Of a stretch of 52,933 nucleotides of DNA, positions 2,073 through 7,171 are shown in pieces (position 1 is the stretch's first letter; every line of letters begins with the position of its first letter). The translations under genes and the position numbers were made by a program. Below the pieces are notes generated by a model. That model was not told the origin of the DNA, did not search any database, and was given only the letters and a program-made list of their open reading frames with translations. Source of the stretch: a virus; IMG/VR virus record IMGVR_UViG_3300012920_000054, positions 1-52,933 of that record; one strand, given 5' to 3'.

Positions 2073-4997
2073 CTAGCTCAAACCACTTTCACTACTGAGT
2101 TTATCAACTGCTGATACTGTCTTCTTTGTATTAGTTGAAATATTACCAAGATGGCTTTCTATTTTTGTATTAATTGCTAAGACTTGCATAGTAGGATCAG
2201 ATGAAGTAGTACCATCAGCACTCATAGGCATTATACTAGTTGGACTCGGTGTAGGAGCATCTCCAGGAGCAATAGTATCAATTACTTTGTCAACTGTGTC
2301 CATCAATCTCTCACCAAAACCTTTTGATGTTGCATCGTTAAGTTTTTTAAGTGCGTCTGCTGATGCAATTATTTCTGCTGTTTCTATTGCATTTAGTCTG
2401 TCAATGGTGTCAATTAAAATATTCATTTCGCTTGTGAATGCATGTAATCCAGCACCATCTAATTTTGAGAATTTTTCAAATACATCTAATTGTGCATACT
2501 GGTCACTTATATCTGGTCCACTAAACCAACCTTCATCTGTTGCGTTAGCAAATGATTTCATAGCATCTGATATTGCTTCAATACCTGCGGCAGTACTCTT
2601 TAGTTCTGCTTCAGAAACATCTCCTAACTCTTTGATATTTTTAGTTGTGGCATCTTGTAAGGCAATATCTTCCTCAACACTATTTCCAAACAAACTACCA
2701 ATTGCCTGTGCGGCATATCCAATACCTGCGGCCGCTATACCTATACCTGCAAGTGCTACACCTATTGCCGCTAAACCTGGAGCAACTACTGTTGCCGCGG
2801 CTCCTGTAACGGCTAATACAGCACCAAAAATTCCTAGAGGTATTGCTACCATTAATAAGCCTTTACCAAATTCTTTCCACTCCATTTCTGCAAATGAAGT
2901 TATTGCTGTTTCAAGTCCTAATAATGCAACACCAACACCTGCGGCGGCTACACCAAATGCGGCCATGCCCACAGCACCGGCTCCAAAGCCTGCACCTGTC
3001 TTGGCGGCACCTTTACCGCTTGGCATCTTGTTATCAATTTTACTTCCGCCGAACCCAGGCATTTTGCTACTTGCAAAACTCATTGCACTTTCCATGCCTT
3101 TTGAGAACAACGCACCAGCGGCACTCTTAACTGCCTTATAGGCAAATGCAACTAGTAATGCATTAATAATTGTACCACTAAGATCAAACTGTTCTATTGG
3201 TTCGCCGTCTGGTCCTTCAACTGTGTCTGTGTCAACAATTATATTTGCTATAAATCCAAATACTTTAGCAACTGCTCCTGCCACACCTGCTATGGCACCA
3301 AAGGCTACTGCTACAGTATCAATAAATCCTGTTACGTCTGATGCCTCCCAATTCTGAACCCAACCTGCTACTTTGTCTCCCATGTTTTCAATGAAAGGAT
3401 TTACTTTCTTTTTAATTGATTCTGCAAGATTCTTCATAGAACCTGTACCATCTTCAGTTAAACCAAATAAGCCTGAGAAAGCAAGTGCAATTTTTTCTGC
3501 TTGAGCATTAAGTACCTGGAATATAGATTCTGATTCTTCTACCCTAGCAAGTTCTTCTTCGTTGAGATTTTTTAATTCTTCTTCTGTGAGTACTCTACCA
3601 TCAAGTGTCTTTGTGCCCTCGGTGAATGCACTTAAGAATTGTGTTAACGGTGTACCAAAAGACGCAAGTAAATTATTACTTGTTCCTGCTAAACTACCTC
3701 TAAATTTAGCCAATGCATTGTCTAGTGTTGCAGATGCTTTTGCTAATTGATTTATATCTTCAGCCGCTTGTCCTGATTGTCTTAATTGTCCAATAGAAAG
3801 TGAAAGTTGTTTACCTAGATCGCCAAAGTTCTCAATAACTGGTCTAATTTCTGCAAGTTGCTCATCTGTTAATCCTTTAGCGGCATTTACTAGAGTACTA
3901 CCAAACTCATTCATCATAAGTGCGGCCGCTTCTGGGTTGGTTTTACTCAACTCATTTATTTGTTGTATTTTTGCTCTTAAATCTGTTCCTGCCTGTGCAT
4001 CCAAGGCAGTTAGTGCCTCAAATAATTCTCCACCTGCATCTGTTCTAAATGCAACACTTTCTAACATTGCATTTTGTATAGCATTGTTCACACCTTGGCT
4101 CAAACCAGATGCTGACATTTCACTTGCCATGCTTTGAATAGCAGTCACAAATCCATTTGCTTCTGGACCCATTGACTGTAATAATAATTGTATAGAAGCA
4201 TTTGTTGTTAATGTATCATCAGCCGAGCCTGCAATCTCGTCAATACTTTTACCAAGTATTGCAGTTGCTTTTAATTGCATTTCATAAAGTTCGGCACTAC
4301 GTTTTGCTTGTTTTTGTCCGTCAAGCATATTAAGTAAACCAATTTGCTGTCTAAGTTTTAAATCTGAGTCTAAAGCCTCTGACATCTGTGCAAGAGTTAT
4401 ACCAAAGTCTGAACCGGCGCCTGTGATGTCTTGAATACTTTTTGTGAGCTGGAGGAAATCTCTTCTACCAACTACTGCAATTATAGATGAAGCATCTTCA
4501 AATCTTTCATTAAGTTGCGCCGAAGTGAAACCCAGAGACTGCATAGATGCTCTAAAGTTAGCCGCATCGTCAAATGCATCACCGGTACCTAAGTCTAAAC
4601 TGGTTCCGCCTCTGCTGTCTCGTAATTGATTACCTATTGCTTTTAAGCCAATCGCCGCGGCAGAAACAGCCGTTAAGAATATGCCAAATATTCCAACACC
4701 TGTTTTAAGTGCTGATTGGAACATACCTACACTCTTGCCACTTTCACCAAGCAAAGTACCTTTGCCTTTACCGTCTTTAATCTCGTTTATGGCTTTGATT
4801 AATTCATCATTGTCTTTGCCTTCTTCATTACCGATACGATTAATTTCCTTAACAAGGTTTTCCATACTGCCTTTTTGCTTGGTGGAAACACCTTCAAGTT
4901 TTTGTATGGCTTCCAACATTTGTTGCAGAGTCTGTTCTGTCGCCCATGCTGGTGCAGTAAATTGCTGTCCATCTATTGATAAGTTAATGTCTGCCAT
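2073..4997 (-). CDS. Tail tape-measure protein candidate (gp29-like role)
   Basis: The 974-aa protein begins MADINLSIDGQQ with a charged helical N-terminus, then a hydrophobic helix at about 93-122 (GIFGIFLTAVSAAAIGLKAI). A long Ala/Ser/Gln-rich helical middle follows, then two very hydrophobic Gly/Ala blocks at about 665-700 and 712-770, and a soluble C-terminus. Long helices with internal membrane-like segments are the hallmark of tape-measure proteins, which set tail length and enter the host membrane. T4 gp29 is 590 aa, so a longer tail would be expected. It sits head-to-head with the gp26-family gene that has frameshift signals, matching the usual tail-chaperone/tape-measure pairing. A late-promoter octamer lies at 5066-5073. 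Assignment rests on composition and context, not on a recognised gp29 motif. Large antisense open frames inside it are shadows. Confidence 0.6.
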   Translation of the reverse strand: MADINLSIDGQQFTAPAWATEQTLQQMLEAIQKLEGVSTKQKGSMENLVKEINRIGNEEGKDNDELIKAINEIKDGKGKGTLLGESGKSVGMFQSALKTGVGIFGIFLTAVSAAAIGLKAIGNQLRDSRGGTSLDLGTGDAFDDAANFRASMQSLGFTSAQLNERFEDASSIIAVVGRRDFLQLTKSIQDITGAGSDFGITLAQMSEALDSDLKLRQQIGLLNMLDGQKQAKRSAELYEMQLKATAILGKSIDEIAGSADDTLTTNASIQLLLQSMGPEANGFVTAIQSMASEMSASGLSQGVNNAIQNAMLESVAFRTDAGGELFEALTALDAQAGTDLRAKIQQINELSKTNPEAAALMMNEFGSTLVNAAKGLTDEQLAEIRPVIENFGDLGKQLSLSIGQLRQSGQAAEDINQLAKASATLDNALAKFRGSLAGTSNNLLASFGTPLTQFLSAFTEGTKTLDGRVLTEEELKNLNEEELARVEESESIFQVLNAQAEKIALAFSGLFGLTEDGTGSMKNLAESIKKKVNPFIENMGDKVAGWVQNWEASDVTGFIDTVAVAFGAIAGVAGAVAKVFGFIANIIVDTDTVEGPDGEPIEQFDLSGTIINALLVAFAYKAVKSAAGALFSKGMESAMSFASSKMPGFGGSKIDNKMPSGKGAAKTGAGFGAGAVGMAAFGVAAAGVGVALLGLETAITSFAEMEWKEFGKGLLMVAIPLGIFGAVLAVTGAAATVVAPGLAAIGVALAGIGIAAAGIGYAAQAIGSLFGNSVEEDIALQDATTKNIKELGDVSEAELKSTAAGIEAISDAMKSFANATDEGWFSGPDISDQYAQLDVFEKFSKLDGAGLHAFTSEMNILIDTIDRLNAIETAEIIASADALKKLNDATSKGFGERLMDTVDKVIDTIAPGDAPTPSPTSIMPMSADGTTSSDPTMQVLAINTKIESHLGNISTNTKKTVSAVDKLSSESGLS

Positions 4998-5097: not shown

Positions 5098-5955
5098 ATG
5101 GCAAAAAGTAAAAGTAATCCATTAGCAGGTTTTTACCGTGCCCCTAAATTATACACGGCAATACCAACTGGTGGAAAATATTATGATGAGGACATCATAG
5201 ACTGGCCTGATACAAATGAATTGCCTATTTTTCCAATGACAGCAAAAGACGAAATGATCATGAAAAATCCAGACGCATTGCTTAACGGAGAAGCAGTTGC
5301 ACAGGTTATTAAAAGTTGTGTACCTTGCGTCAAAGATCCAAGAAAAATGGTTAGCAATGACGTAGACACATTATTAATTGCAATTAATGGTGCAACATAT
5401 GGCGATGAAGTAAATGTATCAGCAAAGTGTCCAGAGTGTGAAACAGACAATAGTGGCGCCGCAAGTGTGCAAACAAGTTTAGATAACATGGTTATGGTTA
5501 AGGACGACTATGAAGTAAACACTGATCAAGGATTAAAAATTACTGTTAAACCATTCCTATATGAAAGCACAATACAGGCAGGACTTGCCAACTTCAAAAC
5601 AACAAGAAGTTTACAGGCATTGCAAGAAGTAGAAGATGAGTTAGAGCAACTTAAAGCATTTAACGAAAACTTTATGAGTATTGCTGGTTTGAACTTTGAT
5701 TTGATCTGTAATAGTGTAAACAGTATTTCTGGCACTGACGCAGACGGTGAAGAGTTTATTGTTACTGATAACAAGAGTATCAGAGAGTTTATGGAAAACT
5801 GTGATGCCGCTATTGGTTCTGCAGTAGAAAAACGTATTGGCGATATCAATGAATTAGGTATCAGCAAAGACTATCAATTAGAGTGTGAGAACTGCGGTCA
5901 TGTATTTAAAACTACTATCGCATTTGATCCTGTAAATTTTTCCACGGCTTCTTAG
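5098..5955 (+). CDS. 26: gp26-family baseplate hub / tail-assembly protein
   Basis: The ATG at 5098 is preceded by AGGAG with a 7-nt spacer, so the upstream TTG extension is rejected; the product is 285 aa. It resembles the T4 base-plate protein family (gp26): N-terminal NPLAGFYRAPKLYTAIPTGG, then KDEMIMKNPDALLNGEA and VIKSCVPCVKDP. It holds two CxxC pairs, CPEC at about residue 116 and CENC near residue 264, suggesting a zinc ribbon. T4 gp26 is 208 aa and acts in central hub assembly. Codon 281 ends a canonical -1 slippery heptamer (5934-5940), four codons before the TAG stop. A start-less -1 ORF follows, so some ribosomes probably make a 359-aa fusion. Family identity is likely; the exact structural role in this phage is inferred. 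Confidence 0.8.
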   Translation: MAKSKSNPLAGFYRAPKLYTAIPTGGKYYDEDIIDWPDTNELPIFPMTAKDEMIMKNPDALLNGEAVAQVIKSCVPCVKDPRKMVSNDVDTLLIAINGATYGDEVNVSAKCPECETDNSGAASVQTSLDNMVMVKDDYEVNTDQGLKITVKPFLYESTIQAGLANFKTTRSLQALQEVEDELEQLKAFNENFMSIAGLNFDLICNSVNSISGTDADGEEFIVTDNKSIREFMENCDAAIGSAVEKRIGDINELGISKDYQLECENCGHVFKTTIAFDPVNFSTAS

Positions 5956-6012
5956 CAAAAGCAAAACCTGAGGCAGTACTGGAGTTAATTAACAGACTCC
6001 GCAAAGAAGCCG
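5934..6012 (+). promoter_or_regulatory. Programmed -1 ribosomal frameshift signal
   Basis: The heptamer A AAT TTT (5934-5940) is in the zero frame of gp26 and fits the X XXY YYZ rule. Four nucleotides downstream, CGGCTTCTT (5945-5953) is perfectly complementary to AAGAAGCCG (6004-6012). Inside the loop, GGAGT (5981-5985) can pair with ACTCC (5996-6000). The outer stem overlaps the gp26 stop codon. Slipping back one base enters the open -1 frame at 5940. A miscounted T in the 5-T run would be the alternative explanation. Confidence 0.7.
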
Positions 6013-6176
6013 ATACCTTAGAAAAGAGCCTTATAGAAATTGCTGTGTATAGTGGCGGAAGTATATCATGGCAAGATGCTCAACTTATGTCCATTAAAGA
6101 ACGTGAATTGACTGTTAAGGTAATCAACAAATATAATCAAATCAAAGCAGGTAAGACTGTAGGGGAAGAAATGTAA
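5940..6176 (+). CDS. -1 frame extension of gp26 (frameshift product C-terminus)
   Basis: Seventy-eight codons are open in the -1 frame from the slippery site to TAA at 6174-6176. The sequence starts FHGFLAKAKPEAVLELINRL and ends QIKAGKTVGEEM. Upstream in the same frame there is a TGA shortly before the heptamer and no ATG or GTG at the beginning; the first ATG is 50 codons in. Independent translation is therefore unlikely. The segment is helical and charged with a SISWQDAQLMSIKERE motif, similar in style to the second domain of tail-assembly chaperones such as lambda gpT; it may be the counterpart of T4 gp51, but I cannot show that. Expected product: residues 1-281 of gp26 plus these 78, total 359 aa. 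Confidence 0.7.
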   Translation, partial: FHGFLAKAKPEAVLELINRLRKEADTLEKSLIEIAVYSGGSISWQDAQLMSIKERELTVKVINKYNQIKAGKTVGEEM

Positions 6177-6195
6177 GAGACACTTCGTGTCTTTT
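6175..6195 (+). terminator. Rho-independent-type terminator after gp26/-1 ORF
   Basis: AAGAGACAC-TTC-GTGTCTTTT forms a 9-bp stem (one G-U) with a 3-nt loop, its right arm ending in a T run. It overlaps the -1 ORF stop codon. Confidence 0.65.
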
Positions 6196-6728
6196 CAATC
6201 TACATTCATTCGTTCGTTTCACTCACTTCATTCACTTGATTGAAACTTTTTATTAAGATAATCGATTTCATGCAGATTCCGAGGTCATATGAAGCCAACC
6301 AATAAGGCTTCATAAAAAAAGGACTTCATGCGAGTACACGTCGGCCATAAACGAAGACAGGTATTTTGTTTGCACTCTATTGGGCTCTGACCTTACCAAA
6401 CCTGCGTCGATTTTTAATCTCATCTCGCTTCACTTATGAGAATATAGAGTATAGCAATACTTTTCACAACTATTAAGACTTAGCAAATGTATCTCACCAG
6501 TGGGTGGACATTTAAGCATCCTTTCGGGTAGTGCTAAGAATCGCATAACAACCAATGCTCATGCTTACCATCACACGTCAGGATGGATTTCGCAACGGAA
6601 TCATAATTGGCCCGTCAACCGTATGTGTTGTTTGTATGTGTTTTAAGAGTTAGACTTTGTGTCTGTGAGTGCCATGTTTGTATTCAGTAGATACTTATAT
6701 ACACCGATATTAGTGTATAAATTTTTTT
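6196..6728 (+). ncRNA. Probable structured non-coding RNA (no ORF)
   Basis: This roughly 530-nt stretch has no credible ORF but many perfect helices. TTTCAATC (6193-6200) pairs with GATTGAAA (6238-6245). A 9-bp hairpin spans 6288-6314. TCTCAT (6418-6423) pairs with ATGAGA (6436-6441). Two three-way folds follow. In the first, CTTAGCA/TGCTAAG (6479-6485/6532-6538) encloses AAATGT/ACATTT (6485-6490/6508-6513, sharing base 6485 with the outer arm) and ATCC/GGGT. In the second, CCAAT/ATTGG (6552-6556/6606-6610) encloses CCATC/GATGG (6568-6572/6582-6586) and ATTTC/GGAAT (6587-6591/6597-6601). The U-G pairs work only for a plus-strand RNA, and a plus-strand terminator closes the region. The 5' end and promoter are not clear. 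It matches no tRNA, tmRNA, RNase P or intron core that I recognise. Confidence 0.5.
6698..6728 (+). terminator. Plus-strand terminator closing the non-coding region
   Basis: TATACAC (6698-6704) pairs perfectly with GTGTATA (6713-6719) around an 8-nt loop, followed by AA and seven Ts (6722-6728). It faces the convergent GIY-YIG gene. Nothing protein-coding on the plus strand ends here, which supports a plus-strand RNA upstream. Confidence 0.6.
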
Positions 6729-6732
6729 GAGT

Positions 6733-6750
6733 AAAAATGCTCTTAAGAGC
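6733..6750 (-). terminator. Possible minus-strand terminator after the gp55-GIY-YIG operon
   Basis: On the minus strand the 12-base palindrome GCTCTTAAGAGC overlaps the stop codon of the GIY-YIG gene and is followed by ATTTTT. The stem is short (4 bp plus a TTAA loop), so this is tentative. Confidence 0.4.
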
Positions 6751-7171
6751 CTTTAAGGTGTTCCTTAAGAATTTGAGAGCCACCTATACGAACATTGATT
6801 ATGCCGTTGTAGTAGTCATCACTGAGTAACACTTCTCTGTCGAATTGTTCCTTGGCTTCTAAATAACTTGATATGCCCCTGCTAGGACAAAAGTGAAGAA
6901 TTTCTCTGATAAAATTCTCCTCGCCATATTTTTCTACATCTTCTTTGAGATGATCTGAACTTCCCCAATATGTTTTCCAATCGCTTTCTTTGTAACCACG
7001 ACGTTTGTTCTTTTTGCCTTTCAAGGGAGGTTTGGTTGTTTTGAACTTGGCTAGTTTTTTACCAACATACTTCATGCCGTTCTTTTTGTTTGTGATTAGA
7101 TACACAAATGCTTCACAGTCTTCTGGTAATGTGTCTATAATTGCTTTTTCGTATAACCAAGGACTACGCAT
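6743..7171 (-). CDS. GIY-YIG family endonuclease-like protein
   Basis: The 142-aa protein carries the two-strand signature of GIY-YIG nucleases: FVYLITNKKNGMKYVGKK, with Tyr24-Leu-Ile and Tyr35-Val-Gly. A basic segment (about 45-60, KGKKNKRRGYKESDW) and a YWGSSDHLKEDVEKYGE region follow, as in short phage nucleases of this family. Such proteins are often freestanding homing endonucleases (T4 Seg type) or resolve DNA in repair. Its ATG overlaps the gp46 stop by one base (TAATG), so it is translated as the last gene of the gp55-gp47-gp46 operon. That stable placement in a replication/recombination operon favours a resident role over recent invasion, but this is inference. Confidence 0.75.
   Translation of the reverse strand: MRSPWLYEKAIIDTLPEDCEAFVYLITNKKNGMKYVGKKLAKFKTTKPPLKGKKNKRRGYKESDWKTYWGSSDHLKEDVEKYGEENFIREILHFCPSRGISSYLEAKEQFDREVLLSDDYYNGIINVRIGGSQILKEHLKGS

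What the first reader, a model, noticed from the sequence alone, without database searches (positions are those of the whole stretch)
5934..6176. Programmed -1 frameshift joining gp26 to a start-less downstream ORF
Seen: heptamer A AAT TTT in frame, 4 nt spacer, a perfect 9-bp stem (5945-5953 with 6004-6012) with an inner 5-bp stem, and an open -1 frame of 78 codons that lacks its own start and begins exactly at the shift. Known: lambda G/GT and many other tails make chaperones by frameshifting next to the tape-measure gene. I am not aware of this being described for T4-type gp26, which would make the gp26/gp51 pair an analogue of G/GT.
Basis: partly seen in the sequence, partly recalled or inferred. 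Interest (0 to 1): 0.85.

Follow-up and report, generated by a model that had tools for sequence, protein, structure and literature searches.

The report
Frameshifted tail chaperone in marine phage
A marine relative of phage T4 appears to make a second, longer version of its tail-building helper protein by having ribosomes slip back one base near the end of the gene, and the same signal is present in nearly every T4 relative checked outside T4's own group, the group long treated as the exception.

Summary
Gp26 (5098-5955 +) ends 12 nt after an in-frame A AAT TTT (5934-5940). Four bases downstream is a perfect 9-bp stem. The -1 frame stays open to 6173 and has no usable start codon.

Conservation, not the single sequence, carries the case. 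In 31 distinct alleles of the window's clade the heptamer and the 77-79-codon -1 ORF never fail, and dN/dS of the ORF is about 0.1. In wider scans, 69/69 distinct window/jumbo-type loci and 79/79 cyanophage-type loci carry an X XXY YYZ heptamer opening into a -1 ORF.

T4 gp26 and gp51 are paralogues. Gp51 is the same N domain fused in frame to the C domain that relatives reach by the shift. So this is the G/GT (TAC-N/TAC-NC) tail chaperone system; T4 apparently replaced the shift by duplication and fusion.

That T4-like phages have such chaperones is published (Vladimirov 2022, not readable here), so this is a new member of a known kind. No wet-lab evidence exists. The stem is not universal; cyanophages carry an SD-like stimulator instead.

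By-product: a conserved, covarying ~365-nt RNA (6272-6635) with no Rfam match.

The parts
5098..5955 (+). gp26 homologue, short chaperone form (TAC-N), 285 aa
   Evidence: Pfam PF12322 T4_baseplate E=2e-15; phrog_150 baseplate hub E=3e-16
5934..5940 (+). slippery heptamer A AAT TTT (P-site AAU->AAA, A-site UUU->UUU)
   Evidence: invariant in 31/31 distinct alleles
5941..5944 (+). 4-nt spacer TCCA
5945..5953 (+). 5' arm of 9-bp stem (its last base is the T of the 0-frame TAG stop)
6004..6012 (+). 3' arm of 9-bp stem
   Evidence: 3 pairs with changes on both sides, 12 compensatory cells vs 5.5 +/- 1.8 in shuffles
5981..6000 (+). inner 6-bp stem-loop (5981-5986 with 5995-6000)
5953..5955 (+). 0-frame stop TAG of gp26, 12 nt after the heptamer
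5940..6176 (+). -1 frame C domain (TAC-C), 78 codons plus stop, no start codon; fusion reads ...FDPVNF-FHGFLAKAK...; frame open from 5928
   Evidence: all-helical model, mean pLDDT 86.6; dN/dS about 0.1
2073..4997 (-). divergent 974-aa protein, best tape-measure candidate (5 TM-like segments, the only such ORF of at least 120 aa in the window)
   Evidence: homologous to a PA5oct virion structural protein E=1.5e-9 and divergently placed next to gp26 in relatives; positional counterpart CBB_251 is a heavily covered virion protein (PMC5259590)
6176..6195 (+). hairpin plus T-run just after the -1 ORF, probable terminator of the chaperone transcript
   Evidence: (AGAGACACTTCGTGTCTTTT), fold

Best explanation
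[quoted passage not shown] Most ribosomes stop at TAG 5953 and make gp26 (TAC-N, 285 aa). A minority pause at the stem just downstream, the tRNAs in the P and A sites slip from A AAU UUU to AAA UUU, and translation continues to 6173, giving a gp26-C fusion (TAC-NC, about 359 aa). By analogy with lambda G/GT, TAC-N coats the tape-measure protein (probably the divergent 974-aa product) and the all-helical C domain recruits tail-tube subunits; neither stays in the virion. Shown here: coding and selection on the -1 ORF, conserved slip site, absence of a start, and family-level identity of the C domain with the C-terminal part of T4 gp51. Inferred: that slipping happens, its efficiency, and the chaperone role. 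In the T4 group the two forms come from two genes (26 and 51) after duplication and in-frame fusion.
For: Sequence and fold. Heptamer and -1 ORF in 31/31 distinct alleles, no start codon before codon index 13. Purifying selection. Jumbo phages Phosso, CBB, PA5oct, Atu_ph07, XaC1, SNUABM19, Munch: T TTT TTC and a homologous -1 ORF (hhalign 1.1e-16). Cyanophages, KVP40-like, phiAS5, phiM12, Cr30: same layout. SD-like GGAGG 9-10 nt before the heptamer in 50/79 cyanophage-type genes vs 215/15971 other windows; Glu codon GAG:GAA 50:12 there vs 531:1330 elsewhere. T4 gp26 and gp51 both PF12322; the gp51 C-terminus matches the cyanophage -1 ORF over its whole length from the shift point, E=4e-14. Tree: gp26+gp51 of the T4 group form one clade (98/98) beside shift users. 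The gp26 counterpart is not in the rows of the CBB virion protein table shown.
Against: No reporter, ribosome profiling or peptide data. The stem is lost in part of the clade and RNAalifold does not recover it as the consensus; part of its conservation is coding constraint, though folding beats synonymous variants on average (mean z -1.85). The P-site AAU->AAA slip has a wobble mismatch. AlphaFold of gp26 is poor (pLDDT 65.7) and fold searches give no chaperone match. The direct profile match of the window/jumbo C domain to the T4-group gp51 C-terminus is short (about 29 columns, pairwise E 7e-5).
Confidence: 0.9

Rival explanations
1. The -1 ORF is a separate small gene translated by termination-reinitiation (coupling), giving a free C domain rather than a fusion.
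For: In Cr30, RHph_N34, phiM12, QD01 and Cygsa01 an ATG in the -1 frame overlaps the gp26 stop (TGATG/TAATG), and most of these records annotate separate genes there.
Against: In the window clade none of 31 alleles has ATG/GTG/TTG before codon index 13, usually 30-49, while the slip heptamer is invariant; conservation of the C domain starts at the slip, upstream of any start; T4 gp51 is a true N+C fusion.
Confidence: 0.05
2. Sequencing or assembly error: one continuous gene in reality.
For: A T-run is a typical place for an indel.
Against: Independent contigs and isolate genomes all keep the same frame relation, the 0-frame end ..NFFTAS* is conserved, and in L026 the stop is lost but the -1 layout stays.
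Confidence: 0.01
3. Transcriptional slippage on the A3T5-6 run makes mRNAs with an altered frame.
For: The run holds a homopolymer of 5-6 T.
Against: Runs that slip well are generally longer (general knowledge); the invariant feature is the codon phase of an X XXY YYZ heptamer, and an SD-like element at fixed distance in cyanophages fits ribosomes, not polymerase.
Confidence: 0.03
4. Real frameshift, but the product is a virion or hub component rather than a tape-measure chaperone.
For: gp26 is named baseplate hub in databases, and some T4 work placed gp26 in the hub (PMC3004832).
Against: The same review lists gp26 and gp51 as hub assembly chaperones; the CBB gp26 counterpart is missing from the virion protein rows shown and the PA5oct one bears no MS flag while its neighbours do.
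Confidence: 0.12

Closest known systems
Phage lambda G/GT (and P2 E/E+E') tail assembly chaperones
   Same: Short form plus low-level -1 frameshift extension near the end of the gene, next to the tape-measure gene
   Different: No sequence relationship was shown here; the slip is A AAU UUU or U UUU UUC, and the tape-measure candidate is divergent instead of downstream
T4 gp26 / gp51 (PF12322; TAC pair of Vladimirov et al. 2022)
   Same: Same N-domain family; gp51 carries the C domain that the frameshift adds here
   Different: T4 uses two genes on opposite strands and no frameshift; T4 gp26 abuts gene 25 and has no -1 ORF of this kind
Cyanophage (Kyanoviridae) gp26 + short 'gp51'
   Same: gp26 ends in T TTT TTC and a -1 ORF follows that is open from the slip
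   Different: SD-like stimulator upstream, large downstream gene (tape-measure position) on the same strand; GenBank lists two separate genes
Vandenendeviridae/Andersonviridae TAC frameshift (phage Adele, PMC12846349)
   Same: Conserved -1 shift at a T-rich motif (GTTTTT) with the -1 frame open in every genome
   Different: Different phage families and a different motif

Membership tests
Programmed -1 ribosomal frameshift site | X XXY YYZ heptamer in the 0 frame | tested here: met
   AAATTTT 5934-5940; 31/31, 69/69 and 79/79 distinct loci
Programmed -1 ribosomal frameshift site | -1 ORF open through the slip, under protein-level selection | tested here: met
Programmed -1 ribosomal frameshift site | stimulatory element (downstream structure or upstream SD) | tested here: met
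   Stem in window and close relatives, lost in L027-L042; SD in 50/79 cyanophage-type genes
Programmed -1 ribosomal frameshift site | measured shift in cells | not testable with these tools
   needs a reporter, ribosome profiling or mass spectrometry
Tail assembly chaperone pair (TAC-N/TAC-NC, lambda G/GT type) | two nested forms, N and N+C | tested here: met
   gene layout; T4 gp51 as encoded fusion
Tail assembly chaperone pair (TAC-N/TAC-NC, lambda G/GT type) | located next to the tape-measure gene | tested here: inconclusive
   Adjacent divergent 974-aa gene is the best candidate, but no family hit proves it
Tail assembly chaperone pair (TAC-N/TAC-NC, lambda G/GT type) | known chaperone fold | tested here: inconclusive
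   gp26 model pLDDT 65.7, no significant PDB match
PF12322 / T4 gp26 family | profile match above the curated cut-off | tested here: met
   57.5 bits vs cut-off 24.5

The most novel reading that the evidence does not exclude
Frameshifting in gene 26 is the ancestral and general way the T4 superfamily makes its two tail chaperones (marine jumbo lineage, Rak2/PA5oct/Atu_ph07-like jumbos, cyanophages, KVP40-like and others), with stimulators swapped between lineages. T4's own gp26/gp51 pair is a later duplication with in-frame fusion, so T4's status as the exception to the G/GT rule is a derived loss, and this was not previously spelled out.
Probability: 0.4. Interest if true: 0.65.

Novelty: new member of a known kind. 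Interest (0 to 1): 0.52.

Why it matters
G/GT frameshifting has been called conserved in long-tailed phages 'except T4' (PMC5009743). The data place the shift in relatives on several sides of T4 and explain gp51 as its gene-encoded counterpart. They also assign a role to a start-less ORF that is missing, truncated or listed as a separate gene in all 19 public records of shift-type or related phages examined here, including cyanophages and jumbo phages of Pseudomonas, Pectobacterium, Erwinia, Salmonella, Xanthomonas, Agrobacterium and Sinorhizobium. They give a direct test: a two-frame reporter and a junction-peptide search in existing proteomes.

Tried and rejected
Sequencing error: rejected on comparative grounds. 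Independent start: rejected for the window clade, kept as possible for phages with TGATG/TAATG. PHROG, Pfam and PDB look-ups for the C domain: nothing useful. Gp26 fold: model too weak, hits meaningless. PDB sequence search: nothing. RNAalifold over the 21-sequence slip region does not return the 9-bp stem, so the stem is claimed for the close subclade only. Rfam over the region and window: nothing. tblastn of the C domain against isolate phages: no match; homologues were found only by position behind gp26. The key paper (Virology 566:9) is not in the library; what it reports is known here only through citing papers. The 'tape measure' label of Atu_ph07 gp701 was checked and set aside: the protein is 205 aa. 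IME-SM1 could not be read clearly at the gene end and is not counted.

Full report
WHAT IS THERE. The window is a 52.9-kb virus record with a T4-type gp26 at 5098-5955 + (PF12322, 57.5 bits, cut-off 24.5). The gene ends GTA AAT TTT TCC ACG GCT TCT TAG. A AAT TTT (5934-5940) is an in-frame slippery heptamer. After TCCA comes a perfect 9-bp stem, 5945-5953 with 6004-6012, with an inner 6-bp stem; MFE -23.4 kcal/mol, z -3.9. The -1 frame is open 5928-6173 and gives 78 codons after the shift.

IS IT MORE THAN CHANCE. Scans of viral contigs with gp26 and with the -1 peptide returned 43 and 24 loci. Across 31 distinct alleles the heptamer is invariant, the -1 ORF has 77-79 codons, no start codon precedes the conserved domain (first ATG/GTG/TTG at codon index 13-49), and substitutions concentrate at third positions. 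dN/dS is 0.08-0.23. In wider profile scans, 69 of 69 distinct window/jumbo-type loci and 79 of 79 cyanophage-type loci have an X XXY YYZ heptamer in the last 45 nt with the -1 frame open from it. The -1 frame runs a median 221 and 179 nt beyond the stop, against 16 nt for the +1 frame (the two short cases, L231 and L248, run into the ends of the loci). The 69 overlap with the 31, so the numbers must not be added.

HOW WIDE IT IS. Seven isolate jumbo phages (Phosso, CBB, PA5oct, Atu_ph07, XaC1, pEa_SNUABM_19, Munch) have T TTT TTC at the same place and a homologous -1 ORF. GenBank starts it at an ATG of its own, mostly internal, or omits it (hhalign window set vs jumbo set E 1.1e-16). Cyanophages S-PM2, P-RSM4 and DSL-LC02, Melnitz-2, Cr30, phiM12, RHph_N34, phiAS5 and the KVP40-like QD01 show the same with T TTT TTN. 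Ackermannviridae (Det7, BX-1) and Cygsa01 have the ORF but a weaker or different motif. None of the 19 records of such phages examined carries a joined CDS.

WHAT IT IS. T4 gp26 and gp51 both belong to PF12322 (8.8e-64, 3.9e-52). Gp51 has an extra C-terminal stretch that matches the cyanophage -1 ORF over its full length, starting at the shift point (E 4e-14). The match from the window/jumbo ORFs to the gp51 end is shorter (about 29 columns, E 7e-5). In a tree of N domains the T4-group gp26 and gp51 form one clade (98/98) next to the shift users phiAS5 and QD01 (91/87). The simplest reading is that one shifting gene was ancestral and the T4 group replaced it by duplication and in-frame fusion. 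The root is a midpoint and some branches are long, so this is an inference.

HOW IT WORKS. The P- and A-site tRNAs slip from AAU UUU to AAA UUU. Relatives with TTTTTTC can slip there or on U UUU UUC, and both give the same fusion (NFF-H). The window and a few relatives have TTTTTCC and only the first option. Stimulators differ by lineage. The window's stem is kept at 7-9 of 9 pairs in its close relatives, with compensatory changes (12 cells vs 5.5 +/- 1.8 in shuffles), and folding exceeds synonymous variants (mean z -1.85), but it is lost in L027-L042. Cyanophage-type genes instead carry GGAGG/GAGGG 9-10 nt before the heptamer in 50 of 79 genes, against 215 of 15971 other windows (overlapping windows, so the p value is only indicative), and prefer GAG for the glutamate there 50:12, against 531:1330 elsewhere. 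That is strong independent evidence for ribosomal frameshifting in this gene family.

ROLE. By analogy with lambda (PMC5009743), the short form would coat the tape measure and the C domain would recruit tube subunits. The adjacent divergent 974-aa gene is the best tape-measure candidate: the only ORF of at least 120 aa with TM-like segments, homologous to a PA5oct virion protein (E 1.5e-9), and in the same divergent place in relatives. Its CBB counterpart is well covered in virions while the gp26 counterpart is not in the rows shown. PMC3004832 lists T4 gp26 and gp51 as hub assembly chaperones. The C domain is predicted all-helical (pLDDT 86.6) with no PDB match.

WHAT IS KNOWN. Vladimirov, Gautam and Davidson 2022 identified the T4-like tail assembly chaperones; its title proposes a mechanism other than frameshifting. 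PMC10885494 cites it for T4-like phages that carry a short gene and a long fusion gene; PMC12846349 cites it for poly-T frameshift signals in T4-like TAC-N genes. The paper could not be read. The finding is therefore filed as a new member of a known kind. If that paper does not cover these lineages, its value rises.

BY-PRODUCT. Right after the -1 ORF lies a gene-free stretch (6177-6742) as conserved as the genes (78-96% in close relatives). Its core, about 6272-6635, has a consensus fold in 12 alleles with 26 pairs showing changes on both sides (10.9 +/- 2.0 in shuffles, 6-12 in slid controls). It has no long ORF and no Rfam match at E<=1. A covariance model of part of it finds nine further alleles but nothing in the jumbo isolates' stretches searched. 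This looks like an undescribed structured RNA and deserves its own study.

Noticed in passing
window 6272-6635 + (gene-free stretch 6177-6742): Candidate new structured RNA, about 365 nt, directly downstream of the -1 ORF: 26 covarying pairs in 12 alleles, 84-96% identity in close relatives, no long ORF, no Rfam match at E<=1. Found in about 20 alleles of the marine clade, between gp26 and a small GIY-YIG-like gene where the flank was checked; not detected in jumbo isolates.
   Followed up: partly
window 6177-6250: Hairpin plus T-run (GAGACACTTCGTGTCTTTT) followed by a CATTCATTCGTTCG-rich stretch that recurs in other loci in both orientations; probably a shared terminator-like element.
   Followed up: no
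window 25001-46558 +: A single open frame of 7185 codons, about 40% of the record; function not examined.
   Followed up: no
cyanophage-type loci L176-L255, 9-10 nt before the gp26 heptamer: SD-like GGAGG/GAGGG strongly enriched with biased codon choice (GAG GGA), a different stimulator for the same frameshift.
   Followed up: yes
window 6743-7171 -: PHROG label 'NAD synthetase' (phrog_447) for a 142-aa protein that also matches several homing endonuclease families; the label is probably wrong.
   Followed up: no
L026 2420-2450: The conserved gp26 stop is lost (TAG to TCG) and the 0 frame runs 9 codons further, yet the slip and -1 ORF are intact.
   Followed up: no
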